Origin: Legionella steelei
GTDB lineage: Bacteria; Pseudomonadota; Gammaproteobacteria; Legionellales; Legionellaceae
Direction of reading: 5' to 3'
NCBI RefSeq assembly: GCF_001468005.1
Contig: NZ_LNYY01000019.1
Location: 775,110 to 839,109 of the forward strand
Length of the DNA stretch: 64,000 bases
Numbering within the stretch: position 1 is the first letter of the stretch; each line of letters opens with the position of its first letter. The notes beneath the pieces were generated by a model, which saw only the letters and a list, made by a program, of their open reading frames with translations, ran no database searches and was not told the origin of the DNA. The translations under genes were made by a program, and so were the position numbers. Of this stretch, positions 32,373 through 59,227 are shown one piece after another.

Positions 32373-35300
32373 TTATTTCTTAGATAGATTTAATCCTTCT
32401 TCAGGAACATCAATTTGCTTTGTGATGGCGCTAATTCTATCCCTATAATTTTGTGTGCCTTGACCTACACTGCGTTGATAATCAAACTCAAATTCCCATT
32501 CTTTACAGAACTCTGCTATGATTTCCATGACCCTATTATAAATTTTATCAATATCATCAAGGCCTGCTTCATTAAGCTGATTATAATGTTCTTCATCAAA
32601 ACATCTAGAGACAGTAGTAGGCAAACTCGTCAGAAAATCTGATGCCTCAGTGATTGCTGCGCATATTTCCTCACTACCTAGAGAACTGTTTTCGAGATCG
32701 TTAAATATTCTTTGTCCATTTCGCCATAGATTAACCATATTTCCATTTATAGCCCGCAATAAAGCTTTTTGCTCTTTAGTCATATCTTTGCTGTAAGTAT
32801 GGATAATTGTAGCATTTAATTCACCCAGTACTTCTATAGCTACTAGCAATTTTTTAGGTAATTCGCCGACTTCCTTTTTGCGAAGGTCTTTTAACGTTTT
32901 ATAGCTCTCACGCCCTGCATTCAAAATGAGTTTATTATCTTGTAACGTTGTTAAGAAATTTTTATAATCCACCCCGACCTCAAAACCATGCTCCTTAATT
33001 TTTTCCAATTGAGCACGATTAGATCGATATTGTATTAAGTTTTGTTTTACTGTTTCGCTGTTGAGAACCCCAATGATTTGACCCCATTCATCCGCTTGTT
33101 GTGTTCCATGGAAACGAGGATTATAAGTCCTTGATTCACTGGGGTAAGCTTTTAATACGCTATCAATCATCTGCATCCATTTTTTCTGAATTCCAGATAA
33201 TCGTTCAACTTGTGCTGAAAGCTCATTTAATCTGCCCACTAGTTTAAAACAGTGCTCTGCGTCTTGGGGCTCAGTTAAAATAATGCTTTTTATTTCTTCG
33301 TTTAAGTCCTTCAACCAAGAAGGTTGAGAGACCTCTTGAAGGAATTCTTTATCCTCATTTGAAAGAAATGGATCCTCCATTTTTCCCAACGATTCTTGCA
33401 AAAATTCAGTCCACTTTAAAAAATCCTTATTTTTTTCAATTAAAGAATAAAAATCTTGTGGAAATCCTAATTTTTTCAAAGAAACCGACGTTTGCCCTAA
33501 AGGATGTCTCTGGACGTTTGCTTTAATTTTTTCTTGTAGTCGACTAAGCTTTTCTGACGAATCTATTGTCGTGTCATCCTCTAAGTCTTGAGATAGAGAG
33601 TGTCCCAGTGCACCCATTTGTATTTCATAGAGTGTATTAAAACTATTATAAATTTGCTCGTTTTTTAGTTTTTGTAATCTGTTCTCTATAGATTCTTTAT
33701 CCTCAGAGCGTCGTCTATTCTCTATTACACCTGATAAGTTATTAGAAAGAAAAGCATGGATAGGATTAGATGCAACAGAATTCTTTAAGTTGAGTAAATC
33801 GTCCATTATTTTCGATTTGGGAGCGATGGCTTGTTCAATTTCAATTTGCTTTTGAATTGCAGTTAGGTAATGTGCTTTGAGAATGGTCGCAATGACATCC
33901 CTGCTGGTTCGTAAGGCCAATAAATCTAAGTGATTAGAATGCTCAACCTGCTCGCCACCAGGAAGCTCCATGCCTCGCTGTAAGTAATGATAAGTCTGCA
34001 GCTCTTGACGCAAAAATGCTTCAAGATCACCTTGATTATTGACATCAATCAATATCTGAGTAAGTCTTTCATCGCTAATTTGCTTAACAATTTCTTCTGA
34101 AAATTCCAGTTCCGTAAGAAAGGTTGGCATAGCCTCTATGTCGACACTGGGATATTGTTTTTTAAAATCCCTTTTTAAATCTGAGTAACTTGAATAGATT
34201 GATTTAATCAACCTGTCAAGCTCATCTGTATTATCAGCCGCAACCGAAATAAATGCAGACATTTGACGGAATAGAGTAAGTGGATTCACTTGGGAAGGTG
34301 AAGCGAATGCCATTGCATCTTCAAATGCTGCAATTACTTCTGGATTATATTGCCGCGAATAGGCCTCGATACCTCCTATGAGTGCGATCTCAGCAAATTC
34401 GACAAGCTGTTTGCAATAGGCGACTAATTCTTCTCGTGGCCAAAGAGTTAGATCATTAGTCCATTCTTCAAAGTCATAGTTTTCAGTTGCAATAATAAAA
34501 TCTTCTCTATGAAGCGCCCCTTTGAATCGTTTATCTTCGTTAAGATCGATTGTTACGCGGATATCTCGGCAATGTGGCGCATCTCGTAACTGTTCCATAG
34601 TGTTTAATAGAGGATCTCCGCTATAACGATATTTGTTACATAAAATTTTAAAGTGTTGCTGAGCCACTGTTGGAGTTACTTTTGCCCTGAGGAGAGATAC
34701 ACCTAATTGCTCGAGTGTTGAATTAATGGCCTCTAACTCCTCTTCAACTTGATTGATAGGTGCCTGTTTCACCTTTTTTTCAAAGCGGGGTATTTGGGTA
34801 TCCAGGAACTTGATTATCTCGAGTTGTACTTCTTGAACTTTAAATTCAGTATCAGGTAATCGCAAAGTTTCATTAATTTCCAGAAGAATATCTCTTTTCA
34901 TTGAGAATTCCTCTCTTATTTGATTTTCTCTTTTTTGTTCGGGAATTTTGTCTTCAATTTTTTTGAAAATATTTCTGGCTCGTTCATTAGCTTTTTCTAA
35001 TTTAAAAACGTGGTTTAATAGATTACTGTAATTCGCAAGATTGGGTTTATTGGATTCCTGGATATTTTCCTCTGCTTTGAGGGTCTGTTGCACTAGATCT
35101 TCCAATTCTTGTTTTAGTTCCTCAATTTCAGAACCATTTTTATTCTTTAATCTTAAAAACAGTTCATTTTTAAAATCAGCTACTTCGTTTAAAAATGGCT
35201 CGTAGCGCTCATAAAACGCTGCTTTTTTTGTAGAAAATAATTCTTCCTGTTGAGCAGATTCATCGAAGTCTATTAATATTTTATCGATTGCCAAGATGTT

Positions 35301-36506
35301 ATTGATTATAGGGTTTATCTTTTCTAATCTTTCTTTCAATAATTTATTTTGTTCTTCTAATAATTTATTCGCGGCTCGCAGATATTGCTCTCTATTCAAT
35401 TTCATCGCTTGGAGTTTCTCAGCTTCCTGAGAAAAGTTATCCATGTCTTTTTCGAGTTGCAGTAATTGAGCTTCTGCTTCTTTCTTTAACTGTTCTGCCT
35501 CTACACTTTCCTCACCAAACATTTCGTTTTTTAATTCGCAAATTTTAACAGTGAATTGAGAAAAACGTTCCAGAATAGTTATGGGAGAGCTACCTAAGGC
35601 CTTTTGGTAAAAATCTTCAAGCTTTCTAATCGCTTCATTTTGAGGGAAGGATTTAAGCTTAAGCTCCTTCCATTGTGTCGTTTCTAACATGTGAAGAACT
35701 TCTAAATTGCTGATAATTGTAGAAATTAATGAGGCGTTTAATTCTGAAAGCGACCGAGTCTGATCCTCAACACCATCTACAATTTTCCCAACTTTACTTT
35801 TTTTCTTTCTAGCTACTTTCTCAATTTTTTGTGCATTAGGCACCCGGTTCCGAGGTATTTTTTCAATATCTTCTAATTGGTGAAGTGCGTTTAAAAGATT
35901 CACATAATCGCTGGTTATGGGTAGCTCTTGCTGAAACTCCTTATTGATAATTTGTTCGACTTCCTTCCATTTTTGTTTTAAAGGGTCAACACTAAGTTCA
36001 CTTTCTAATTGTTTCTTAATGAATGCCATCTTTTTTTGTGCAAGGGATTGCATCTCAGCATATGAGATCTTCTCACTGTACTCAAAGGATTTTATATCGG
36101 TATCGATCTCAATTGCTCTTGCGAATTTGGGACCTATTTGTTTTAAGGCTTCTGTAAAAATTGCTTTTTGCTGGGGAAGACGCTCTTTTTCTGGAAGTGA
36201 GGCAATTGAGTTAATGTCTAGTTCTAGTTGAGAAAAAATCCCCCAAAGCTCTCTCCAAAGTTCATTTACCTCATCCACTTCTAAATCTGATTTTTGCTCA
36301 GGCCGTTCAGTCGGTATTAATGAAGTGAAAAGTTTATTGGCAGTTGCGAAGGGAGAAAACTTTTTAACAATTCCATTAAATACCATTTGCCCAAACTCAG
36401 GTTGCTTGAGTCTATGAAATTGAGTATTTTTTAAGCTACGTAATTCGTTGAGAAGAAGTTGAACCTCATCAACTATTTTGAGTTGCTCTTCCTTAGACTG
36501 TGACAT
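32373..36506 (-). CDS. large coiled-coil protein, candidate effector
   Basis: The protein has about 1377 residues from the ATG at 36506, preferred to a TTG 15 bases upstream because GAGG lies at better spacing. It is overwhelmingly helical, rich in Glu, Lys, Leu and Gln, with heptad patterns almost throughout (strongest about 100-600). A less regular segment near 620-900 (NKYRYSGDPLLN, WPREELVAYCKQL) may be globular. No signal peptide, membrane helix or catalytic motif is seen. Size, composition and setting fit long Legionella coiled-coil effectors, but I cannot tie it to a named one. The 3' end abuts the dead gene at 31874-32366. Confidence 0.65.
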   Translation of the reverse strand: MSQSKEEQLKIVDEVQLLLNELRSLKNTQFHRLKQPEFGQMVFNGIVKKFSPFATANKLFTSLIPTERPEQKSDLEVDEVNELWRELWGIFSQLELDINSIASLPEKERLPQQKAIFTEALKQIGPKFARAIEIDTDIKSFEYSEKISYAEMQSLAQKKMAFIKKQLESELSVDPLKQKWKEVEQIINKEFQQELPITSDYVNLLNALHQLEDIEKIPRNRVPNAQKIEKVARKKKSKVGKIVDGVEDQTRSLSELNASLISTIISNLEVLHMLETTQWKELKLKSFPQNEAIRKLEDFYQKALGSSPITILERFSQFTVKICELKNEMFGEESVEAEQLKKEAEAQLLQLEKDMDNFSQEAEKLQAMKLNREQYLRAANKLLEEQNKLLKERLEKINPIINNILAIDKILIDFDESAQQEELFSTKKAAFYERYEPFLNEVADFKNELFLRLKNKNGSEIEELKQELEDLVQQTLKAEENIQESNKPNLANYSNLLNHVFKLEKANERARNIFKKIEDKIPEQKRENQIREEFSMKRDILLEINETLRLPDTEFKVQEVQLEIIKFLDTQIPRFEKKVKQAPINQVEEELEAINSTLEQLGVSLLRAKVTPTVAQQHFKILCNKYRYSGDPLLNTMEQLRDAPHCRDIRVTIDLNEDKRFKGALHREDFIIATENYDFEEWTNDLTLWPREELVAYCKQLVEFAEIALIGGIEAYSRQYNPEVIAAFEDAMAFASPSQVNPLTLFRQMSAFISVAADNTDELDRLIKSIYSSYSDLKRDFKKQYPSVDIEAMPTFLTELEFSEEIVKQISDERLTQILIDVNNQGDLEAFLRQELQTYHYLQRGMELPGGEQVEHSNHLDLLALRTSRDVIATILKAHYLTAIQKQIEIEQAIAPKSKIMDDLLNLKNSVASNPIHAFLSNNLSGVIENRRRSEDKESIENRLQKLKNEQIYNSFNTLYEIQMGALGHSLSQDLEDDTTIDSSEKLSRLQEKIKANVQRHPLGQTSVSLKKLGFPQDFYSLIEKNKDFLKWTEFLQESLGKMEDPFLSNEDKEFLQEVSQPSWLKDLNEEIKSIILTEPQDAEHCFKLVGRLNELSAQVERLSGIQKKWMQMIDSVLKAYPSESRTYNPRFHGTQQADEWGQIIGVLNSETVKQNLIQYRSNRAQLEKIKEHGFEVGVDYKNFLTTLQDNKLILNAGRESYKTLKDLRKKEVGELPKKLLVAIEVLGELNATIIHTYSKDMTKEQKALLRAINGNMVNLWRNGQRIFNDLENSSLGSEEICAAITEASDFLTSLPTTVSRCFDEEHYNQLNEAGLDDIDKIYNRVMEIIAEFCKEWEFEFDYQRSVGQGTQNYRDRISAITKQIDVPEEGLNLSKK

Positions 36507-36694
36507 ACTTCTCGCCCTCAAATGGATTATCTATAATCATATAGTGCAAATATTAACTATTTATTAAGGGCTCTACGTTTTATTGTCTTTTTTTCAAGGC
36601 AAGGTCCTTATATTTAAAGCAAACCCATATTTTATTCAGTGCTTAAAGTATGTATAAAAATCAAAATTGAATTAGAATTTTTCTAAATTAATAG

Positions 36695-46947: not shown

Positions 46948-47340
46948 TTACGAAAACACATTAGCTTCATTAGAATCATCACTGGCCGCATAAGCCTTAG
47001 AACGCCAATCGTCTGGAAGACTTGCTTTTATAGGATGGCCTTGGGCAAGCAGTATCAATAACTCACTGGAACGTAATTGGACTGAAGGACTCAATCCACT
47101 AGGCCACCACGCTAATTTGCCTCGACTAAACCGTTTCTGACTAAGCCAAAATCCACTCGCATCATACACGAATAGTTTCACTGAGGTTCGCATGCGATTG
47201 GTAAAAACAAATACGGTACCGCTGTATGGGTCATCAAGCAATTTTTGTCGGCATAATGCTTTTAATCCATCGATACCTTTTCTAAAATCAACGAGCTCTA
47301 CTGCCAATAACAACCGATGTTGTGGGGTAATCTGCAGCAT
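46948..47340 (-). mobile_element. tnpB: IS66 family TnpB (Orf2) protein
   Basis: The 130-residue protein has the IS66 Orf2 signature: VDFRKGIDGLKALCRQKLL, DPYSGTVFVFTNRMRTSVK, LFVYDASGFWLSQKRFSRGK and WWPSG. It is intact, and follows tnpA by 2 bases. Function in transposition is accessory and poorly known. No complete tnpC lies downstream in this orientation. Confidence 0.9.
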
Positions 47341-47342
47341 CG

Positions 47343-47744
47343 TTACCCCAGAAAGTCCAGCATGAGCTTTGATACCCTACTCATCGGTACTGCATTGATT
47401 TTCAGTATACTGCCACAGGGACGATGAAGCTCAACACTACAAAGCTCATCATTACTCGATAGACACTCTAAATCAAGCCTCGTAGGTTTTCCTTTTACCT
47501 CAATAAACTGCAGACTCGTATTCTGGACAGGTAATAATTTTTTCCTGATTTGGATTGGACGAATCCCTAAATGACTGCCGATTTTCGAAGGCGTATAATT
47601 ACCCAATAGTCCCTTGACCTGCTCCCATAACTCATCTGGGATTTGACTGCGCTTTGTTCGTGTGGTTCGCCATTGTCTAAAGGCTTGTTTAACAGTTTCT
47701 AGTTTATTGGTGCCTTTTATCATTAAGTCGCCTCCTAAAATCAT
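47343..47744 (-). mobile_element. tnpA: IS66 family TnpA (Orf1) protein
   Basis: The 133-residue IS66 Orf1-type protein has an N-terminal helix-turn-helix region (AFRQWRTTRTKRSQIPDELW, LLGNYTPSKIGSHLGI) and ends with the AVPMSRVSKLMLDFLG tail. It is coupled to tnpB. The IS66 left end should lie between 47745 and about 47810, but I could not fix an inverted repeat. Confidence 0.8.
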
Positions 47745-48154: not shown

Positions 48155-48215
48155 CGTAAAACCGACAATAGGAATAAACTTTCAATGCGAATTACCCCCT
48201 TAAATAGCCTATGAT

Positions 48216-49190
48216 TTAACCCACCTTCTGAATTAGATAATAAAAATAATATTTTTTACCCCACGCTGTTTCCTTACGAGAATACTTCGCCAAGTAACGC
48301 AGTGTGGGGTTTTTAAATCTAATTTTCCACCAAGGCAGAAAGGTTGCGCCCTTAGAGCCTGCTAGCGCAAGAAGTTCGGTAAGCGGCATCGGATTATTAT
48401 CATCGCCGAATATCCTTTGAGCCCTTTTACAAAGTCCAGCTTCATCTACAATGAGACGTTTGTAAATAGATGCTTGAACCATCCGGGTAATATTTTTCTT
48501 TTTGATGATTTTTAAATGCTTACTTGTCTTAATATATGCTTCTAATTTGTCTGATTGCTGTTTATTTTTAAAATAAATATCGGCATAACAAAAGAATCCG
48601 CCAGGAGCTAGGACGCGCTCCACTTCAGCAAAAAAAAGCTCAATTCTTGGATAAAGATGAGAGCTTTCAAGGTTTGTTATCACATCAAAACTTTCATCTT
48701 TTAACGCTAAGCTTTCCGCATCAGATTGTAGGTAATTTACTTTTTCATTTTTATAAAAATTACTCTTTGCACGTCTTATCAAAGGAGTTATTAAATCAAC
48801 ACCTAAAGCATATTGAGTTTTCAGTAGTTCAGAACCCAATCGTAAGCCGAGCCCATTGCCACAACCAACCTCTAACAATCTCTTATCGAAAAATTCCATT
48901 TTTACTAATGGCCTGATCAGGTTATAAAGGAGTAGTGGTGAGTAAATATCTTGATATGGAGATAAGGTAGAAATATCAACATTTAACGCCATGTATTCCT
49001 TATATATTTTCTTATTCCACAGCCCCCAGTTCATAAAAACATTTTCTTCAATAAAATGAGCAAAACATTCATAGCTCGATTCGACATCCTGTTTCATTAA
49101 TGTAGCTTCTGAGGAATGATAGCATTTTTGTTTTAGTATTTTATTTGTTTTTCTAAGAGCTTGACTGTACGTTTTGATTTCTTCTTTCAT
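48216..49190 (-). CDS. SAM-dependent methyltransferase of the polyketide locus
   Basis: The 324-residue class I methyltransferase has motif I LLEVGCGNGLGLRLG (about 105-119), an acidic motif at ALGVDLI and a post-motif block YLQSDAESLALKDESFDVITN, and VLAPGGFFCYADI as motif III. Such enzymes O- or C-methylate polyketide and lipid products. The start lies one base after the PKS stop (TAAAATG), so it is translationally coupled and very probably tailors the PKS product. No membrane helix is seen. Confidence 0.85.
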   Translation of the reverse strand: MKEEIKTYSQALRKTNKILKQKCYHSSEATLMKQDVESSYECFAHFIEENVFMNWGLWNKKIYKEYMALNVDISTLSPYQDIYSPLLLYNLIRPLVKMEFFDKRLLEVGCGNGLGLRLGSELLKTQYALGVDLITPLIRRAKSNFYKNEKVNYLQSDAESLALKDESFDVITNLESSHLYPRIELFFAEVERVLAPGGFFCYADIYFKNKQQSDKLEAYIKTSKHLKIIKKKNITRMVQASIYKRLIVDEAGLCKRAQRIFGDDNNPMPLTELLALAGSKGATFLPWWKIRFKNPTLRYLAKYSRKETAWGKKYYFYYLIQKVG

Positions 49191-49191
49191 T

Positions 49192-52100
49192 TTAATCCCT
49201 TATTAAATCAGCAATCTTAGCGTCATCATTTTTTACTAATTTTTTAATAACCTTAATTAATTCGCGGGCTATTTGATCGTTACACTGTTCCGTTAGAGGG
49301 CCATTAATAGACACTAGATATTCGCCATCCTGATTCTTGGTGAAGATAATCCATAAGTATTGATTGCCTATAGGACGGTCTAAACTGGCAAAATGACTGG
49401 CATAATTATAATCAAGATCTGCAAACTTCATATGCAGAGGCTCTTTGGTGAAAAAACCCGCAGTAATATTAATACATACTTTCACCGGACTTGGTTTTAG
49501 TAAAGGGATATTCAAGTGAAACATCTTATTGAGCTTTGATTTGATTAAGATATTTTTTCTTCTCGATATGAGCTGAGCTAAGTAGTTCAGATAGTAGTCT
49601 ATTACTATTGAGTTTAGTTTACTTTTTTTAAAATGTTTCGTTAGAGAAGCTTTATTAAATACATATATCAAATACTGAGACAAGGAAAAACCTTTTAGCC
49701 TCTGGTTTTTGATGAGTTGAGAACATTTTTGATAAGGGGCTGTTTTTAACAGTTGCTCTTCAATTGAATGAATAGAGTCAATATAGCTGCCCTCCACATT
49801 TAAGGTAATATTTATCAATTTAGGTTCCGAGAACAGACCCAGGGCTGATTTGTATTGACTTCCTTCTTTACCTTGATGAATTAGTGCAACAGGTATTTTA
49901 TTTTGCTGACTTATCTTGTAACAAACGATTTGGCATGCAGCAATTAATCCAGAGCTGATACTAATATTTTTTTCTTTATGCCAGTCGATAAATTGTTCAA
50001 TCACTTGTGATTCAATAGGATAATGAAACAAATGCTTGGAGCGCTCAAGCCCTGAATCAGGTAAATGGTTTCCTGGACCAAAATTTACGCCTTTAACTCC
50101 TTTATTATAACGCCACCAAAAATCAATTTTATCTTTCAGGTTTTTTACATAATCAATATTACTCTGTCTCACATAGTCAAAAAAAGATGCTTTTTCGGGT
50201 ATCGGGGTGAGTGTTTCTCCACGGGTAAGTGCAGTGTAATATTTCTTAAACTGTGCAAGTACAATATTACACGTATCATCATCAGATATAATGTGAGGAA
50301 TCACGATATGTAATTCATGCAAATCATTATTCAGCTTATACAGATATACTTTAATCAGTGGCTGTCTGTTTAATGGAATAATACTCATTACATTACTATA
50401 GAATTCATCCTCCAACACATCCATCTCATTATCTGAGGAAATGTCTTCGTAGTTTAGCTTAAATTTGCCAGCTTTCTTCACCATTTGGGTCGGCGTATCT
50501 TCGTTAAAGTTTGTCCAGAAAATACTGTTTTGCTTCACAACAAAATCAAATGCTTCGAACAAATATTCTTTGTTGAGTTTTCCATGAAGTTGTATGTGTA
50601 TACCGCAATTCTGAGCATAACCCATTTTATTTGAAACCCAATATACGTATTGATAATCAGATAAAGCCATTTCCTCTAAAACTGGATTTTTCGTGACATG
50701 AACACTGGTTTCTTTTTCAAAAATACTTTGTAATTCATCAGCAAGATTCCTGGCAATTTTATCAATGCTTGGGTGATTAAGAAAATATTCGATGGGGATA
50801 CTAAGCGATGGGCATTGCAATTTATCATGTATTCGGTTTCTAATTTCTAAATACATCAATGAATCCATGCCCATTGAGTACAAATCATCTTTTGCTGCAG
50901 TTTGATCGAGCTCCGGCATCCCCAGAACATCTGCAGTAATTTTACATAAAGCCAAACTCAACATAGCCACACGCTCTTCATGAGCATGCTCTCGAAGAGC
51001 GTTTAAAAATTGCTGATTGGGTTCAGAAACCTCTTTACTCTGGGCATAATTACTGGTTTCTTTTTCAAAAATATTTTGTAATTCTTCGGCAAGATTCCTG
51101 GCAATTTTATCAATGCTTGGGTGATTAAGAAAATATTCGATGGGGATACTAAGCGATGGGCATTGCAACTTATCATGTATTCGGTTTCTAATTTCTAAAT
51201 ACATCAATGAATCCATCCCCATTGAGTACAAATCATCTTTTGCTGCAGTTTGATCCAGCTCCGGCATCCCCATAACATCCGCAGTAATTTTACATAAAGC
51301 CGAACTCAACATAGCCACACGCTCTTCATGAGCATGCTCTCGAAGAGCGTTTAAAAAGTGTTGAGCTGGTGCAGGAGCCTCCCTGCTCTGAGCGAAAAAC
51401 TCCATTTGTTTCGGTGCGTTTTTGAAATAAATATCTCTATCAATAGGGCATACTGAAATTTGCGTCACCTGATGTGTCAATAAAACATCAAGAATATCCA
51501 CACTGTCTTTATCTAAAGGAATTAAACCTTGTTGTTTCATTGCTTGCGTAAGATTTGCTGCCATCCCCACCGTATGAAAAGGACCCCAGTTAATCGCAAT
51601 TGCGGGTAAACCCAACTGATGTCGTAAATGCGCTAGCCCATCTAAAAATCCATTAGCAGCAACATAGTTTGACTGCCCTTTTGATCCTAGCACCGACGAT
51701 ATAGAAGAAAATAAAACAAACACGTCCAACTGAATATTTTTAGTTAATTGATGCAGAATCTGGGCGCTTTCCATTTTCGCATGTAACACAGTTTGAATAT
51801 CTTCATCGCGTAAATTGACAATCAAGCCATCTTTAATGACGCCTGCGAGATGAAACACGCCTCTTAGAGGTTTGGAGTCTTGCTCAGCATGCTCAAATAT
51901 CTGCTTCATTTGCTGATAATTACTTGCATCAGCAGCATAATGCCTAATGTAGACTTGTTTTTTTCTTGCCCTTGAAATCAAGTCCTTTGTATCCATTGAA
52001 CATTCAGAGCGACTAGTAATAATAATATGTCTAGCACCTCTAAGAATAAGATATTCAATTAATGCCTTTCCTAAACCTCCAGTGCCTCCCGTAATGAGGT

Positions 52101-55100
52101 AACTTGCCTCTCTATCAAATAATGTCTTTTGTTGCTCAGGAGGAGGAGACAATTGTCTTTTTTCTAGCCTGGGGACATAAATTGAATCTCTTACTGCAAA
52201 TTGAGTTTCCAAATTTTTAGCAGAGAATAGATAGTTTAAAAGCTTGTTCAAATTGCCGTTTGAACCTAAGTCAATCGCATAATTTCTACTGAGTCCGAGC
52301 TCATTTCTAAAGCTTTTCCAAAAAGCACTCGCCATGGTATGCTCGGGATTTACTTTTTCATCATTAATGCTATAGGCATTTTCTGTAACTAATATAAAAC
52401 TGCTCGGGCATGATTTAAACATTTTTTGACAGCAATGAAACAACGCCGTAAATTGCCCTTCTTCATAAAAGAAGATTATATTTTTATTTTCTATATTCTC
52501 TAATGTATTCACATCATCTGTACGCTGGTAAACAAGATGGCCAAATACTTGTTTCGCTTTCATTTCATCTTTCGCTATAACCCAAAAATCAGGTATATCT
52601 GATGTGCTTAGCAAGTTTACATTAAGTTTATTCCAGCTTATTTCATAGAGATGATTCAAATTAGATTCATTGCCAGAGATTGGGCTCGCCTGTCCTAAAT
52701 CGATACTTAATAAAGAGTTCCTTTTTTCAAACCAAAATTCTCTCCGGTCAAACGCATAGTTAGGCAGCGTTACTTTTATAAATCGATAACCACAATTTTT
52801 ATAGTATAAATTCCAGTCTACATTGTTGCCTTGCAAATAATCGGCAAGCAGTGACATTAGTACCGCATCGTCGTGTAAATCAAACGGATTATTTTTTCCC
52901 TGCGATGAGGCAAATTGGCCCATATCTAACAATCGCCCCGCCTCAGCAGCGCTTTTAGCAACCACAGCCAACCGATAAGGATGATGTTCTCGGCAAGTGG
53001 CAGCGGTAAAACATACATCACTAAAACTATCTTTTGTTGTTTCTAAATACTGTTGATATCGTTTTGCCAAATGGTCTAATGAGGCTTGGGTTTTTGCCGA
53101 TATAACCAGTAAATTTAATCTGGCTGGTTGAGGTGGACTTTGATCTGCCGTTACAGCAAATTCTTGCAAAATAAGATGGGCATTCGTACCGCTGAAGCCA
53201 AAAGAATTGACCCCTGCGCAGTTGGGTTTTGAACCCATGTTCCAATCCATATTTTGCAGAGCGATATGTGTATCATCTAGTTTTATATTGGGATTTAATT
53301 TCTTAAAATTTAAATTCTTATAAATTTTCTTCTTTTGTAGGCTAATGATCGTTTTAATAACACCTGCTATACCAGAGGCACTTTCAAGATGACCTATATT
53401 TGTTTTAACCGCACCGAGATATAATGGGTTATCTTTACTACGCTGGTATCCATAGACGTTATTAATAGAATGAACCTCGGTAGGATCACCTATAGGAGTA
53501 CCTGTTCCATGCGTTTCAACATAGCTGATGTCACTGCTCGATAACTCGGTTTGTTTCAGCGCTTGCAACATCACTTCTTCTTGGCTTTTACCGTTAGGAG
53601 CAGTAAAGCCCATAGATTTTCCATCATTATTAACTGCTGAGGCTTTAATAACCGCTAAAACCCTATCCTTATCGCGAACCGCGTCCGCCAGTCTTTTAAG
53701 AAAAATGACCCCACAACCTTCGGAGCGCACATAACCATCTGCACCTGCGTCAAAGGTTTTACATTGACCATCGGGCGATAATGCCTTAGCGTTGCATAGA
53801 GCTATATTTATCTCTGGCATTAATATGACATTCACGCCACCAGCCAAGGCAAAATCGATTTCTTTATTTTTTAAGGCCTGACACGCATAGTGAATTGCAA
53901 CTAAAGATGAAGAACACGTAGTATTAAAACTTATTGATGGTCCTTTAAAATCAAAAACATATGCCACTCGACCCGGAATATAACTTACTCCATTGCCGGT
54001 AACATAATAAAAATTTAATGTTTCATTTTGGTGTGGGTAATATCCCGTACCAATGGGACCCACGCCAGCAAATACACCAGTTAAACTATCACGCAAAGAA
54101 CTGGGAGTGTAGTTTGCATTTTCCATAGCCAGATAACAACATTCTAAAAAAATTCGATGTTGAGGCTCCATCAATTTCGCTTCACGGGGACTAATACCAA
54201 AAAAATTTGCATCAAAATCTTTAATATTCTCCATTAATCCAAGTTTATTAACGTAGGATTTTCCTGGGACGTCCATATTTGGATTATAGTATTTTGCATT
54301 GTCCCATCGATCGATTGGAATATCCTTAATGCCACTCAGCCCTTCTTCAAGCAAGCGTTCAAATGCAGTAATATCAGGTGCATTAGGCAGTGAGCAGCTC
54401 ATTCCTATAATGGCGATTGCATCGTCTGCCACCTTCTGAGGCGCATTAATTGATGATTGCTCACTACTGTTTCTAGGTTCATGCCAATAGAGTTTTCTAT
54501 CAAAGTAATACGGTGGTAAATCAACTTTATTGTATTGATTATCACGCTCATCTAATCTTATGTTGGCCCCGGATAGATAAAGCTTGAAAATTTGATTGAC
54601 ATCATTTCCCGTTATTTTGATGTCTTCTTTTATAGTGACTCTTTTCAGCTCATAATCTTTAGACTCTATTGTCTTAATTAACTCCATTTTATCTTTTGCA
54701 ATGATGGCGCAGCGAAATTTATAATGGTCTCGGCAATTGAGCAAGGTATAGCACACATCACGCAAACTGCTGGAGGATTCCTTGAAATAGTGTAAGTAGC
54801 TTGCCATCATGTGTTGCAATGAGTATTCACTGTTTGCTGAAATGACAAAGCATAGCGGTTCACCGTTATCCGCAATAGGTTCCTTTGCTGTGAAACTTGG
54901 AGGCTCTTCAATAATGGCGCTCACATTGGTACCCGTAAAACCAAAATTGGATACTTGTGCATACCTCTTTTTATTTTGTTGTTGCGTAAAGGGTATCGCC
55001 TTAACAGGTATCAGTGCGGGTATGCTTTTTGGATCAATTGAGCTGTTTGGTGTTGCGTAATGTAGGTTTGCTGGTATGGTTTCATGCTTGAATGCCTCAA

Positions 55101-56235
55101 TTACTTTAATCAGTGAGGCAATACCCGATGATGAAATTGTATGACCCAAATTACTTTTTAATGCACCGATAATTAGCGGTTTGTCATTGTCATGCTGGCC
55201 TTGGTGTATGTGTTGAATCGCATTAAACTCAACCGAATCACCAACAACAGTACCTGTTCCGTGTGTTTCAATATAATCAATGTCGCTTGCTGCTAAATGA
55301 GCTTGCTTTAACACGGATTGATGCATCGCAATCTGCGCCTCTATATTCGGGGCAGCCATGCCCATTCCACCACCATCCTGATTCATGACAATGCTTTTGA
55401 TCACCGCATGGATCTGGTTATTGTCTTTAATCGCATCACGTAACCGTTTAACTACCACTACGCCACAGCCTTCGCTACGTGCATAGCCATCGGCTTTAGC
55501 ATCAAAACTACTGCATTGGCCAAGAGCTGATAGCATATTGGCCTTGGTTACGCCGATAAAAATTTCAGGACAAAGACTAAGATGGACTCCGCCAACAATT
55601 GCCATATCGCATTGCTGATTTCTTAATGCCGTGGTTGCCAGATAAAGTGCTGATAAAGAGGAAGAGCATGCTGTATCCACCGTGATGCATGGTCCCTTTA
55701 AATTTAAAAAATAAGAAAGCCTGCCTGCTGCAGCACTGTCAGCAGAACCAATATAGGTATATGCATTAAATTTAATATTGTCTTTATAATTCAGCTGGTT
55801 GTAGTCGTTAGTAGAGATGCCACAGTACACCGCAGTATTTGAATTCTTTAATGAATCAAGGGGGATATTGGCATGGTTTAATGCGCGAATGGATACTTCT
55901 AAAAACAGGCGGTGTTGTGGATCAATTTGTTTTGCTTCAATGGGAGCTATTTCAAAAAAAGCAGCATCGAATAACTGAGGATCATTTAAAAACCCTCCTT
56001 TACGACTCACTATTTTATCGTCTTTCTGCCTATCAGCATCATAATACTTGTCAATATCCCAGCGATTTGCAGGCACTTCTTTGATTGAAGTCTGTTCTTT
56101 AATTAACATCTCATAAAATGCATCAACATCTTCGATATCCGCATTAACTCCGGGAAACTGACAATTTATTCCCACAATAGCGATCGGCTCATGCATTATA
56201 TCGGAAAGATTATCTTCCGAGTTGTTCTTTATCAA
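49192..56235 (-). CDS. AT-less modular polyketide synthase, KS-KS-KR-ACP-ACP-condensation-like
   Basis: A 2347-residue megasynthase. KS1 (about 15-445) has Cys190 (DTACSSSL), His325 (ETHGTGT) and His365 (NLGHTISS). KS2 (about 605-1030) has Cys774 (NTTCSSSL), His909 and His949, so both can condense. Each KS is followed by a short docking-type linker, not an acyltransferase. KR (about 1185-1600) has ITGGTGGLGK and Tyr1524/Asn1528 (QSNYVAANGF). Two near-identical ACPs carry Ser1676 and Ser1792 (GMDSLMYL). The C-terminal 490 residues look like a condensation domain with a degenerate motif PHIISDD in place of HHxxxDG. There is no AT, DH, ER or thioesterase. I use the TTG start at 56235 (GGGGGAT 9 bases upstream); the ATG at 56196 lacks a site. 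Malonyl loading must come in trans. Confidence 0.9.
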   Translation of the reverse strand: MIKNNSEDNLSDIMHEPIAIVGINCQFPGVNADIEDVDAFYEMLIKEQTSIKEVPANRWDIDKYYDADRQKDDKIVSRKGGFLNDPQLFDAAFFEIAPIEAKQIDPQHRLFLEVSIRALNHANIPLDSLKNSNTAVYCGISTNDYNQLNYKDNIKFNAYTYIGSADSAAAGRLSYFLNLKGPCITVDTACSSSLSALYLATTALRNQQCDMAIVGGVHLSLCPEIFIGVTKANMLSALGQCSSFDAKADGYARSEGCGVVVVKRLRDAIKDNNQIHAVIKSIVMNQDGGGMGMAAPNIEAQIAMHQSVLKQAHLAASDIDYIETHGTGTVVGDSVEFNAIQHIHQGQHDNDKPLIIGALKSNLGHTISSSGIASLIKVIEAFKHETIPANLHYATPNSSIDPKSIPALIPVKAIPFTQQQNKKRYAQVSNFGFTGTNVSAIIEEPPSFTAKEPIADNGEPLCFVISANSEYSLQHMMASYLHYFKESSSSLRDVCYTLLNCRDHYKFRCAIIAKDKMELIKTIESKDYELKRVTIKEDIKITGNDVNQIFKLYLSGANIRLDERDNQYNKVDLPPYYFDRKLYWHEPRNSSEQSSINAPQKVADDAIAIIGMSCSLPNAPDITAFERLLEEGLSGIKDIPIDRWDNAKYYNPNMDVPGKSYVNKLGLMENIKDFDANFFGISPREAKLMEPQHRIFLECCYLAMENANYTPSSLRDSLTGVFAGVGPIGTGYYPHQNETLNFYYVTGNGVSYIPGRVAYVFDFKGPSISFNTTCSSSLVAIHYACQALKNKEIDFALAGGVNVILMPEINIALCNAKALSPDGQCKTFDAGADGYVRSEGCGVIFLKRLADAVRDKDRVLAVIKASAVNNDGKSMGFTAPNGKSQEEVMLQALKQTELSSSDISYVETHGTGTPIGDPTEVHSINNVYGYQRSKDNPLYLGAVKTNIGHLESASGIAGVIKTIISLQKKKIYKNLNFKKLNPNIKLDDTHIALQNMDWNMGSKPNCAGVNSFGFSGTNAHLILQEFAVTADQSPPQPARLNLLVISAKTQASLDHLAKRYQQYLETTKDSFSDVCFTAATCREHHPYRLAVVAKSAAEAGRLLDMGQFASSQGKNNPFDLHDDAVLMSLLADYLQGNNVDWNLYYKNCGYRFIKVTLPNYAFDRREFWFEKRNSLLSIDLGQASPISGNESNLNHLYEISWNKLNVNLLSTSDIPDFWVIAKDEMKAKQVFGHLVYQRTDDVNTLENIENKNIIFFYEEGQFTALFHCCQKMFKSCPSSFILVTENAYSINDEKVNPEHTMASAFWKSFRNELGLSRNYAIDLGSNGNLNKLLNYLFSAKNLETQFAVRDSIYVPRLEKRQLSPPPEQQKTLFDREASYLITGGTGGLGKALIEYLILRGARHIIITSRSECSMDTKDLISRARKKQVYIRHYAADASNYQQMKQIFEHAEQDSKPLRGVFHLAGVIKDGLIVNLRDEDIQTVLHAKMESAQILHQLTKNIQLDVFVLFSSISSVLGSKGQSNYVAANGFLDGLAHLRHQLGLPAIAINWGPFHTVGMAANLTQAMKQQGLIPLDKDSVDILDVLLTHQVTQISVCPIDRDIYFKNAPKQMEFFAQSREAPAPAQHFLNALREHAHEERVAMLSSALCKITADVMGMPELDQTAAKDDLYSMGMDSLMYLEIRNRIHDKLQCPSLSIPIEYFLNHPSIDKIARNLAEELQNIFEKETSNYAQSKEVSEPNQQFLNALREHAHEERVAMLSLALCKITADVLGMPELDQTAAKDDLYSMGMDSLMYLEIRNRIHDKLQCPSLSIPIEYFLNHPSIDKIARNLADELQSIFEKETSVHVTKNPVLEEMALSDYQYVYWVSNKMGYAQNCGIHIQLHGKLNKEYLFEAFDFVVKQNSIFWTNFNEDTPTQMVKKAGKFKLNYEDISSDNEMDVLEDEFYSNVMSIIPLNRQPLIKVYLYKLNNDLHELHIVIPHIISDDDTCNIVLAQFKKYYTALTRGETLTPIPEKASFFDYVRQSNIDYVKNLKDKIDFWWRYNKGVKGVNFGPGNHLPDSGLERSKHLFHYPIESQVIEQFIDWHKEKNISISSGLIAACQIVCYKISQQNKIPVALIHQGKEGSQYKSALGLFSEPKLINITLNVEGSYIDSIHSIEEQLLKTAPYQKCSQLIKNQRLKGFSLSQYLIYVFNKASLTKHFKKSKLNSIVIDYYLNYLAQLISRRKNILIKSKLNKMFHLNIPLLKPSPVKVCINITAGFFTKEPLHMKFADLDYNYASHFASLDRPIGNQYLWIIFTKNQDGEYLVSINGPLTEQCNDQIARELIKVIKKLVKNDDAKIADLIRD
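50704..51358 (-). repeat. tandem 348-bp duplication of the ACP-coding segment
   Basis: Bases 50704-51010 and 51052-51358 match at about 95 percent or better by eye with a period of exactly 348 bases (116 codons). Each encodes the linker plus ACP (HAHEERVAML through LEIRNRIHDKLQCP). High nucleotide identity, including third codon positions, shows that the duplication is recent or kept uniform by conversion. Confidence 0.9.
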
Positions 56236-57322: not shown

Positions 57323-58045
57323 CTATGGGGAACGATTACGCAAAGAAGCTAAAGCACTTGCGACTATATCATTATCGTCTTCTGCTTGAAGCGTATCTTT
57401 TTTAGCATGAATGTTTCTCGTTGTATACTCAATGGAAATTTCTTTATTCTCATTGAGCCGGACAATTACATCCGTATTTTCACCCTGACTATTTACCTCA
57501 AGCTTAGCTTGTTGAATAATTTTTCTTTTTACTAAGGAATCAATTTCATTCGTCATGTCAGAAAAATCTTTTTGGCCGCCGATAGCAAAACATTGCATCT
57601 CAGATGTTACGCCTCCTTGAGACTTTAGGGCTTTTTTCATACTTTTAATTGTATCTTCTGCAGATAGTTCATCGCCAACCCAGTGATTAAGTGATGCTAT
57701 AGGAGTCCCATTTGCAGTTTTACCGACAACAATTAGTGCATAGCAAGATGCAAGAGCTTCAGTGCAAACCATCTTATTTTTATTATTTAAGTAACCAGTA
57801 CTAGCCATTGGAACTTGATTTTTTTTATCCATTTCCATAAGGTCAATCGTTTCTTGCTGTATCATTTTTATTGGCGCCATTGCATCTTTTGTTTTTCCGC
57901 CACTTTTTCTTTTGGAACAAGCACAGGAAAATAATTTTTCCATAAGACTGGTTGAGGATTCAGCTAAGTCAGTAGAATCTTCATCAGCTTGTTCTTGTCT
58001 TATTTTGTTACTAATCTCATCTTTATTTCTAGAGTCCATGGTCAT
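57323..58045 (-). CDS. hypothetical protein with CheD-like Thr-Cys-His signature
   Basis: The 240-residue soluble protein has a disordered charged N-terminus (1-75) with a Cys-rich patch (FSCACSKRK). The central region reads VCTEALASCYALIVVGKT (Thr95, Cys101), IASLNHWVG (His121), a helix MKKALKSQGG and MQCFAIGGQKDF. Thr at -6 from Cys, a His about 20 later on a strand, and a following GG turn are the layout of CheD-type protein glutamine deamidases (Thr21/Cys27/His44 in the Thermotoga enzyme). Overall similarity is low, so this is a proposal. No chemotaxis gene is near; an effector that deamidates a host protein is conceivable. Confidence 0.6.
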   Translation of the reverse strand: MTMDSRNKDEISNKIRQEQADEDSTDLAESSTSLMEKLFSCACSKRKSGGKTKDAMAPIKMIQQETIDLMEMDKKNQVPMASTGYLNNKNKMVCTEALASCYALIVVGKTANGTPIASLNHWVGDELSAEDTIKSMKKALKSQGGVTSEMQCFAIGGQKDFSDMTNEIDSLVKRKIIQQAKLEVNSQGENTDVIVRLNENKEISIEYTTRNIHAKKDTLQAEDDNDIVASALASLRNRSP

Positions 58046-58162: not shown

Positions 58163-59227
58163 TTAAATATAGGTTGCGGCATTTAAACTCTCAACTTCTG
58201 TATTTAATTCCTGAGCCTGATATTGCATATTTTTTATATAGCATATTCGGCGTGCTAGAGAACCAGTAGGGTTAAAATTTTCTTGCATTTCTATCCTGTT
58301 TAATCTTTTTAATAGATCATCTAGATTGTTACTTTTTTGAAGTATTTCATTAACCTTATCAGCATAATGCCGATTCCAGTGAAAAGTAGCAAAAAGAGCA
58401 AATCCCGGGCTCCAAGAGTCATTTTTTGTATAATCCTTTAAAAGATTTTTTGCCTTCTCAAATAAATCTTCTGAAGGCGAATGAGTCAGTTCATTATAGC
58501 TATCAGGGAAGTATTCTTTTTTCCTGTATTCAATCAAATCTATTGTTCTTTCTGATGTAAGAGAGAAAAGACTCATATCTTTTGGAACGGTAAGCGTTTT
58601 AACAGAAACAGGTAATCTAATAATCAAATCACGCAATACTTTATCATCGATAGCCTGTTTTTTTTGTGGGTTCCCTCCTAAAAGAGAAATTTCTTTTATA
58701 TTATTTGGAAAACTACTAAAAAAAGGAATCAGTTCTTCATAAGTACAATTTTCAATCACTTCCGCATTGATGGTGAAATGAGTTATGTGCTTTGGAATAG
58801 CCTTTATCACATCCTCTGGATTTTTCAATTTTTTTTGGAGATTAAAATTAACCTTATTTATAAAATTTGGTAGCTGTTTTAAATACTCAATACAATCCCT
58901 TTTAGATTGCTCAGAAGCGATTACCGAAGGAGGATAGTTAAACACCCGAAATCCATAAACAATAGAAGTCGTGAATTTATTGGGGAAAAGATCAATATTT
59001 TCGGCCGCTTCCCGGCTCTCGATAATAATATCATCGTTTTTGCGCGGCAGCCCCTCCATCATATTAAAAGCTTCTTCCAAAAGCTCTTTTGTGATTGGCA
59101 TTTCTTTTTTTCGATAACAATAAACCTCGTCTGAACAAAATTCATCCGGCTTTATCCTTATATCTCCTGATTTTTTGCTAGGCGTTTTTTTAGTACCATT
59201 AAATGTAAATAATATCAAACCACCCAT
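58163..59227 (-). CDS. hypothetical LRR-like protein, candidate effector
   Basis: The 354-residue soluble protein's middle (about 150-230) has LRR-type strands at regular spacing: AIPKHITHFTINA, FPNNIKEISLLGG, LPVSVKTLTVPK. These resemble the degenerate LRRs of Legionella proteins. The last 110 residues are helical and end MQYQAQELNTEVESLNAATY. No signal peptide. A frame-internal start further in is possible, since no clear ribosome site precedes 59227. The function is unknown. Confidence 0.6.
   Translation of the reverse strand: MGGLILFTFNGTKKTPSKKSGDIRIKPDEFCSDEVYCYRKKEMPITKELLEEAFNMMEGLPRKNDDIIIESREAAENIDLFPNKFTTSIVYGFRVFNYPPSVIASEQSKRDCIEYLKQLPNFINKVNFNLQKKLKNPEDVIKAIPKHITHFTINAEVIENCTYEELIPFFSSFPNNIKEISLLGGNPQKKQAIDDKVLRDLIIRLPVSVKTLTVPKDMSLFSLTSERTIDLIEYRKKEYFPDSYNELTHSPSEDLFEKAKNLLKDYTKNDSWSPGFALFATFHWNRHYADKVNEILQKSNNLDDLLKRLNRIEMQENFNPTGSLARRICYIKNMQYQAQELNTEVESLNAATYI

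What the first reader, a model, noticed from the sequence alone, without database searches (positions are those of the whole stretch)
49192..56235. Unusual PKS architecture: two KS in a row, no AT, tandem ACP, and a terminal condensation-like domain
KS1 has no carrier protein of its own before KS2, both KS have intact catalytic residues, no acyltransferase is present, and the end is a condensation-like domain with PHIISDD instead of a thioesterase. This suggests trans-acting malonyl loading and release by ester or amide formation onto an unknown acceptor, followed by methylation. The product would be a short methylated polyketide conjugate.
Basis: partly seen in the sequence, partly recalled or inferred. 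Interest (0 to 1): 0.7.

Follow-up and report, generated by a model that had tools for sequence, protein, structure and literature searches.

The report
Trimmed Legionella polyketide synthase, two ketosynthases
A Legionella gene encodes a small, intact enzyme for building a polyketide-type small molecule; it is a shortened member of a family found across most of the genus, and its first chain-building domain has no carrier of its own, which makes it a natural test of how such enzymes share parts.

Summary
In detail: the 2347-aa minus-strand frame 49192-56235 reads KS1-KS2-KR-ACP-ACP-C, without AT, with both KS triads intact and a methyltransferase gene 1 bp downstream. The host is a Legionella close to L. 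bozemanae and L. parisiensis. The gene is neither decayed nor an assembly accident: both species share it and its junction, and KS1 dN/dS is about 0.1. It is a trimmed member of an AT-less PKS family whose terminal C domain matches in 36 of 45 genomes of the genus. In 29 of 46 family proteins KS1 is followed by an ACP-like domain, serine-less in 26; in 9, from five groups on the KS1 tree, another KS follows directly. Window KS1 nests among relatives with KS1-KR-ACP-KS; that KR-ACP was lost, and the last ACP was duplicated with a 348-bp period. I think both KSs share one KR and the twin ACPs, FabD or another discrete AT supplies malonyl, and the C domain releases the chain onto an acceptor. Anatomy and history are shown; the chemistry is inferred. 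New variant of a known kind.

The parts
49192..56235 (-). AT-less type I PKS gene, KS1-KS2-KR-ACP-ACP-C, 2347 aa
54436..56196 (-). KS1 with its KS-AT-type linker (aa 14-600); triad C190, H325, H365
   Evidence: in the KS1 clade
54484..54519 (-). LPPYYFDRKLYW (LPxYxFx5W) motif closing KS1
54424..54483 (-). 20-residue linker joining KS1 directly to KS2; place where KR1-ACP1 sits in the nearest relatives
52918..54423 (-). KS2 (aa 605-1106), equivalent to the last KS of the longer relatives; NTTC in place of DTAC at the active cysteine; triad C774, H909, H949
52108..52788 (-). linker and region taken as the KR structural half (aa 1150-1376); no DH found
51574..52107 (-). KR catalytic half (aa 1377-1554)
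   Evidence: sequence printed
50704..51394 (.). tandem duplication of 348-bp period carrying the two ACPs
51046..51288 (-). ACP1 (aa 1650-1730; Ser1676 in GMDSL)
50716..50940 (-). ACP2 (aa 1766-1840; Ser1792 in GMDSL)
49195..50676 (-). terminal condensation-fold domain (aa 1854-2347); H1981 and D1985 of PHIISDD
48216..49190 (-). SAM methyltransferase, start codon 1 bp after the PKS stop codon

Best explanation
This is a working two-gene cassette (PKS plus methyltransferase) that makes a small reduced polyketide or modified fatty acyl. Read from sequence and trees: it belongs to a Legionellaceae family of AT-less PKSs and descends from a KS1-KR-ACP-KS-(DH)-KR-ACP-C form by loss of the first KR-ACP (and of a DH, if the ancestor had one); the last ACP was duplicated; KS1 has no carrier of its own and is under strong purifying selection. 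Inferred: malonyl is placed on the twin ACPs by FabD or another discrete malonyl-AT after pantetheinylation by the genus's single Sfp-type enzyme. KS1 takes the starter acyl chain and condenses it with malonyl on one of the twin ACPs, and the single KR reduces it. KS2 then takes the chain for a second condensation on the other ACP, again reduced by the same KR. So two KSs, one KR and two interchangeable ACPs act as a collapsed two-module line. The C domain then transfers the acyl chain from the ACP to an unknown alcohol or amine, and the methyltransferase caps the product or its precursor. I put identity and history at about 0.9, discrete-AT loading at about 0.85, C-domain release at about 0.65, and sharing of the ACPs by KS1 at about 0.45.
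For: Architecture and intact residues. Same gene and junction in L. parisiensis and L. bozemanae, 91-92% identity in the best segment, with the block 48180-56234 shared and the flanks not. KS1 dN/dS 0.095-0.119 against 0.138-0.269 for KS2 and 0.276-0.423 for C, in the three pairs that have KS1. KS1, middle KS and last KS form three clades; window KS1 lies in the KS1 clade, window KS2 in the last-KS clade. Window KS1 nests in an 11-row clade (100/100) made of 3 window-type and 8 KS1-KR1-ACP1-KS3 proteins: in those 8, KS1 stands directly before the KR1-ACP1 that the middle KS has in the long forms, which argues that KS1 can elongate on a neighbour's ACP. Of the proteins whose domain strings are printed, only window-clade members show twin terminal ACPs, and only that clade has no ACP1. 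In all 4 clade members KS2 has [NST]TTC, against 0 of 32 other last KSs, which have DTAC, as expected if it now takes a different chain. Four genomes with this PKS family have only one short AT frame, of FabD size. C fold with HxxxD in 30 of 32. A laboratory chimera with a tandem KS made product (PMC11260071, one passage).
Against: No chemistry has been seen. In mupirocin biosynthesis the ACP-less KS MmpF works with free ACPs and showed no discernible interaction with the one ACP of the downstream module that was tested (PMC10098928, passages), which favours a trans ACP. One relative cut off by its contig end (L003/L069) shows a single ACP, so the twin is not shown for the whole clade. The link between ACP loss and ACP duplication is one event. 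KS1's constraint does not say which reaction it performs. The AlphaFold model of KS1-KS2 was poor (pLDDT 66.7, pTM 0.51). None of the neighbouring frames scanned (10 frames between 43899 and 61594, the PKS included) is a FAAL, another starter enzyme or an AT.
Confidence: 0.5

Rival explanations
1. KS1 works like MmpF of mupirocin: it elongates the starter on a free-standing ACP (for example the fatty-acid AcpP) and hands the finished chain to KS2.
For: MmpF is a KS without its own ACP that does two rounds on free ACPs before the modular MmpB KS (PMC10098928, passages). KS1 lacks a working ACP directly after it in most relatives, by serine loss or by deletion, as expected if it never needed a cis ACP.
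Against: No carrier-protein match among the neighbouring frames scanned. In 8 relatives KS1 directly precedes a KR-ACP.
Confidence: 0.2
2. KS1 is a non-elongating gatekeeper or priming domain: it holds or proofreads the starter, and only KS2 condenses, once or repeatedly.
For: A tandem KS chimera with an ACP-less KS1 still made product (one passage). KS1 is the first domain and lacks a carrier in 38 of 46 family proteins if all 29 ACP-like stretches are counted as dead.
Against: KSs taken as inactive in PMC5764310 (KS0) lack the catalytic histidine (passages), whereas KS1 keeps the triad in 45 of 46. Acyl transfer from KS to KS without a carrier arm is not known to me (recalled).
Confidence: 0.2
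3. KS1 is kept for structure only, as a dimerising scaffold.
For: It lacks a carrier directly after it.
Against: Catalytic residues kept in 45 of 46 and dN/dS near 0.1.
Confidence: 0.08
4. The gene is a decaying deletion product or an assembly artefact.
For: It is shorter than the relatives with full frames, and fragments of related genes lie elsewhere in three relatives (L089-L092 from G017, G040 and G004).
Against: Intact frame and same junction in three genomes, with the junction linker also at the cut edge of a fourth; purifying selection in every stretch tested; co-conserved downstream methyltransferase.
Confidence: 0.02

Closest known systems
C-terminated PKSs of other Legionella, including perhaps the L. 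pneumophila PKS 'cluster I' of PMC5126622 (Fig. 3 legend)
   Same: No AT in the two relatives scanned, KS1 at the N-terminus, terminal ACP-C.
   Different: The long forms have three KSs and an ACP-like domain, mostly serine-less, between KS1 and the next KS; the window form has neither that domain nor the middle KS, the first KR-ACP or the DH, and has twin ACPs. That the drawn L. pneumophila PKS is this family is my inference from the legend; I did not match the sequences.
trans-AT PKS (class as recalled; gladiolin and mupirocin lines)
   Same: No AT domain, LPxYxFx5W motif after each KS, discrete ATs elsewhere in the genome.
   Different: Single stand-alone gene with no AT beside it; KS clade not established; the KSs lie apart from those of the same genome's other AT-less clusters.
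MmpF/MmpB of mupirocin (PMC10098928, passages)
   Same: An ACP-less KS working before a modular KS with several ACPs.
   Different: MmpF is a separate protein with a truncated AT-like region and uses free ACPs; here both KSs are in one chain.
Tandem-KS chimera of PMC11260071 (one passage)
   Same: ACP-less KS1 placed so that two KSs follow each other.
   Different: Engineered; here natural, in five groups of the KS1 tree.
NRPS condensation domains and PapA5-type acyltransferases
   Same: Fold and the HxxxD core; weak profile match to a phthiocerol/phthiodiolone dimycocerosyl transferase (E 1.7e-05).
   Different: PHIIxDD/G instead of HHxxxDG; 12-16% identity to the 20 best structure matches.

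Membership tests
trans-AT PKS | no AT inside the modules | tested here: met
   Pfam scans of the window protein and two relatives; genome-wide AT search
trans-AT PKS | a discrete malonyl-AT exists to load the ACPs | tested here: met
   four AT places in the genome, including a FabD-like one near a KS gene and a 278-aa discrete one in another PKS region; none adjacent to this gene, and activity untested
trans-AT PKS | KSs fall in trans-AT substrate clades | tested here: inconclusive
   no reference KS set at hand; own quick tree puts KS1 with cis-AT and cyanobacterial KSs; best solved matches of KS1 are a 1690-aa putative PKS (7zma) and CurL
trans-AT PKS | KS flanking linker ending in LPxYPFx5W | tested here: met
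   LPPYYFDRKLYW and LPNYAFDRREFW, without the P before F; the RhiE-like linker model also matches the cis-AT PKS on C5, so that match does not discriminate
Legionellaceae C-terminated PKS family | KS1 in one clade and a terminal C domain with PHIIxD/E | tested here: met
NRPS-type condensation domain, chain-releasing | C fold | tested here: met
   AlphaFold model pLDDT 86.5; the best Foldseek matches are NRPS C and related domains
NRPS-type condensation domain, chain-releasing | HHxxxDG motif | tested here: not met
   PHIISDD; the second His and the Asp are kept
NRPS-type condensation domain, chain-releasing | forms the ester or amide with an acceptor | not testable with these tools
   needs biochemistry
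KS0 non-elongating KS | loss of the catalytic His | tested here: not met
   triad intact in window KS1 and in 45 of 46 family KS1s, window included

The most novel reading that the evidence does not exclude
Legionellaceae PKSs contain a naturally orphaned but working ketosynthase: KS1 has lost its carrier by serine loss or by deletion, and it condenses on the ACP of the next module. One module is thus served by two different KSs; in the window clade this has been compressed to two KSs, one KR and duplicated ACPs. This would break the rule of one KS per carrier inside a single polypeptide.
Probability: 0.35. Interest if true: 0.75.

Novelty: new variant of a known kind. Interest (0 to 1): 0.5.

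Why it matters
Whether a KS can work with a carrier that is not its own decides how assembly lines can be cut and rejoined. Here evolution has made the tandem-KS arrangement that engineers met unexpectedly, in five groups of one family, and kept it. The C domain of this family is found in 36 of 45 Legionella genomes searched. A paper title seen in reference lists reports that a L. pneumophila polyketide synthase reduces vacuole-lysosome fusion (Shevchuk 2014, title only); whether it is this family was not tested. The product is unknown.

Tried and rejected
Rejected: decayed gene (dN/dS) and assembly artefact (same junction in three genomes, linker present at the cut edge of a fourth). Rejected: KS0 reading of KS1 (triad intact). 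Rejected as evidence: the RhiE-like linker match (also hits a cis-AT PKS) and presence of a second short AT frame of about 285 aa (such frames also occur in genomes without this PKS). Led nowhere: AlphaFold of the KS1-KS2 tandem (pLDDT 66.7, pTM 0.51), which says nothing on whether KS1 and KS2 pair.

Literature: searched for Legionella polyketides, for terminal condensation domains, for tandem KS and inactive ACPs. I saw the listings and, beyond the papers cited, passages of PMC11828895, PMC10921412 and PMC7930024. None of what I saw describes a natural KS-KS tandem or KS1-dead ACP-KS of this kind; the library holds open-licence papers only.

Rows dropped before counts: fragment copies and contig-end pieces L089-L094 and loci L001-L008 (the same family seen again in later loci) were not counted. 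KS1 pieces listed but not fetched as genes: G017:C13:2765076, G042:C4:2916, G138:C184:3. L069 lacks KS1 because its contig ends there. L071, L120 and L122 are interrupted genes, used only for the pieces that read open. A first automatic label of architectures lumped KR-type with ACP-like rows; one search used hand lists instead. The 70 working ACPs were picked by a motif that contains the Ser, so their 70 of 70 is by construction.

Full report
What is there. The minus-strand frame 49192-56235 encodes 2347 aa. Pfam gives two ketosynthases, one ketoreductase, two carrier domains and a condensation domain, and no acyltransferase, dehydratase or thioesterase. KS1 (C190, H325, H365) and KS2 (C774, H909, H949) keep their triads. 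KS1 ends in LPPYYFDRKLYW and only 20 residues separate that motif from KS2. The KR keeps a glycine-rich cofactor motif and the S, Y and N that I recall as catalytic (sequence). Both ACPs keep GMDSL; they lie in a tandem duplication of 348-bp period and are 276 of 285 identical at the DNA level. The methyltransferase at 48216-49190 starts 1 bp after the PKS stop; its best NCBIfam names are phthiotriol dimycocerosate and fatty-acid O-methyltransferases, far below their cut-offs.

Where it is. The best named relatives are L. parisiensis and L. bozemanae, at 91-92% identity in the best segment. The window lies on a 2.4-Mb contig of a 4.23-Mb genome. The DNA block shared with these two species is 48180-56234 (to 56272 in L. 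bozemanae); in the flanks held, only one further 127-bp stretch matched, in L. bozemanae (blastn, E up to 1e-10). So the PKS and methyltransferase behave as a two-gene cassette.

Is it functional? Between the window gene and the two named orthologues, KS1 dN/dS is 0.119 and 0.104, and 0.095 between those two; KS2 is 0.269, 0.203 and 0.138; KR 0.124, 0.144 and 0.136; C 0.423, 0.358 and 0.276 (Nei-Gojobori). KS1 is thus at least as constrained as the KR; among whole domains only ACP2 is lower (0.081-0.092). Every stretch tested is below 1.

The family. A search of 45 genomes of the genus with the C domain found a match in 36, in one of them (G042) only in contig-end pieces. I took PKS stretches from these 36 and, through a KS1 search of 140 genomes of the order, from 10 more genomes of other genera of the same family. 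That gave 47 proteins, 46 with KS1 (one, L069, is cut off). Three of the 46 come from interrupted genes (L071, L120, L122), of which only open pieces were used. Their arrangement after KS1 is of three kinds: 29 have an ACP-like stretch of roughly 105-135 residues and then a KS; 9 have a KS directly (window, L067, L068, L076, L083, L118-L121); 8 have KR-ACP and then a KS. The ACP-like stretch matches a profile of the family's working ACPs in all 24 first tested (E 2.5e-10 to 0.0023 against those 24 sequences, filters off). At the serine column the 70 working ACPs have Ser, by the way they were picked. Of the 29 stretches, 26 do not; one (L126) has Ser without the preceding Asp, and in two (L073, L097) the alignment is ambiguous because a DS pair sits two residues away. 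KS1 keeps Cys-His-His in 45 of 46; L126 has Asn for the first His. So across the family KS1 usually has no working carrier directly after it, yet stays catalytically equipped.

How the window form arose. In a 79-row quick KS tree (SH-aLRT support only, with long-branch warnings) the KS1s, middle KSs and last KSs of the family are three clades; window KS1 is a KS1 and window KS2 is a last KS. In a careful KS1 tree the window clade sits inside an 11-row group (100/100) whose other 8 members are the 8 KR-ACP types. The 9 tandem proteins fall in five groups on that tree (window clade; L076; L083; L120; L118/L119/L121). That means five losses if a deleted domain does not come back; parsimony that allows reversals needs at least 4 changes. 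I read the history as: long form; loss of the ACP-like domain and middle KS; then, in the window clade, loss of KR1-ACP1 and duplication of the last ACP. Of the 8 nearest relatives only L074 and L075 have a DH, so when the DH went is open. L076, L083, L118, L119 and L121 keep the middle KS and have lost the ACP-like domain; in L120 the middle KS is interrupted. All 4 window-clade proteins have [NST]TTC at the KS2 cysteine; the other 32 last KSs have DTAC. The same genome also keeps a 2800-aa KS1-KR-ACP-KS-KR-ACP-C paralogue on C21.

Malonyl supply. AT matches exist in 45 of 45 genomes. The window genome has four: in a cis-AT PKS on C5, in a FabD-like 318-aa frame near a KS gene, in a 278-aa frame at C19:1507959 in another PKS region, and in a frame of about 280 aa whose match runs over two stop codons. 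Four genomes with this PKS family (G034, G016, G043, G037) have two AT matches each: one short frame of FabD size (322-333 aa) and one inside a longer frame (931-2942 aa). G037 is 82% complete and the G016 PKS gene is interrupted. There FabD is the likely loader. PMC5126622 (abstract, section 11 part 1 of 2, and section 20; [quoted passage not shown]

Release. The AlphaFold model of the C domain (32 sequences, pLDDT 86.5) matches NRPS C domains (Foldseek E down to 4.4e-24; 12-16% identity in the 20 best rows). The profile also finds NRPS C domains first, and a mycobacterial dimycocerosyl transferase weakly. Of the 32 aligned, 32 have P-H at the motif, 30 have the Asp and 2 Glu. The catalytic His of this superfamily is the second of HHxxxDG (recalled), and it is kept. 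Transfer to an alcohol or amine is therefore likely; the acceptor is unknown.

What KS1 does. The reading I favour is sharing: KS1 and KS2 use one KR and the twin ACPs. It rests on relatives where KS1 stands directly before the KR-ACP that serves another KS elsewhere in the family, on the ACP duplication in the one clade that lost ACP1, and on the changed KS2 active site. Against it stands mupirocin MmpF, an ACP-less KS that works with free ACPs (PMC10098928, passages). A laboratory chimera with a tandem KS gave product (PMC11260071, one passage), so the layout is workable. PMC5764310 (passages) reports a serine-less ACP in another trans-AT line, where a second ACP serves the module.

KS origin. 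Neither KS groups with the other AT-less lines of this genome. KS1 falls with the KS of the cis-AT PKS on C5 (42% identity, as for KS2) and with cyanobacterial and other KSs. The best solved relatives of KS1 are a 1690-aa putative PKS (7zma) and CurL; with KS1-KS2 as query 7zma is again first, followed by a PKS-NRPS hybrid (psoA) and CurL. I could not run a reference-clade test, so cis-AT ancestry with an old AT loss stays open.

Verdict. What looks new is the family-wide lack of a working carrier after KS1, and its history; my searches showed no report of a natural case of this kind in the library held. A terminal C domain in a Legionella PKS was already noted in 2016.

Noticed in passing
L036:4778-12607 (own genome C5): A second C-terminated PKS of another make: AMP-ligase-ACP-KS-AT-KR-ACP-C with a cis AT; its C domain has SHLLTDG.
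   Followed up: partly
L032:5636-20000 and L033:16-3894 (own genome C19, about 32 kb beyond the window): A large AT-less line starting with an AMP-ligase-type domain, 4 KS plus a 1292-aa partner with a thioesterase.
   Followed up: no
57323-58045: Protein weakly matching the XopAK family of secreted effectors (below cut-off); next to it 58163-59227 has DUF5617.
   Followed up: no
46948-47744: IS66 accessory gene (TnpB) and an unmatched small frame beside the cassette, consistent with a mobile neighbourhood.
   Followed up: no
L089, L090, L091, L092: Fragments of the same PKS family (C alone, or KR-ACP-C pieces) in three relatives that also carry longer copies.
   Followed up: no
L126 (G062): Long-form relative in which KS1 has EANG where the others have E-x-HG and the ACP-like stretch has a Ser at the usual place: a possible reversal of roles.
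   Followed up: no
L084, L085, L088: Relatives without a KR match in the last module; L084 and L085 also have PHIIAEG in the C domain.
   Followed up: no
L006:7657-9581 and like loci: Several long-form genes have a divergent pair, a methyltransferase related to the window one (57%) and a Cupin_8 protein.
   Followed up: partly
32373-36521: 1382-aa frame with no Pfam match.
   Followed up: no
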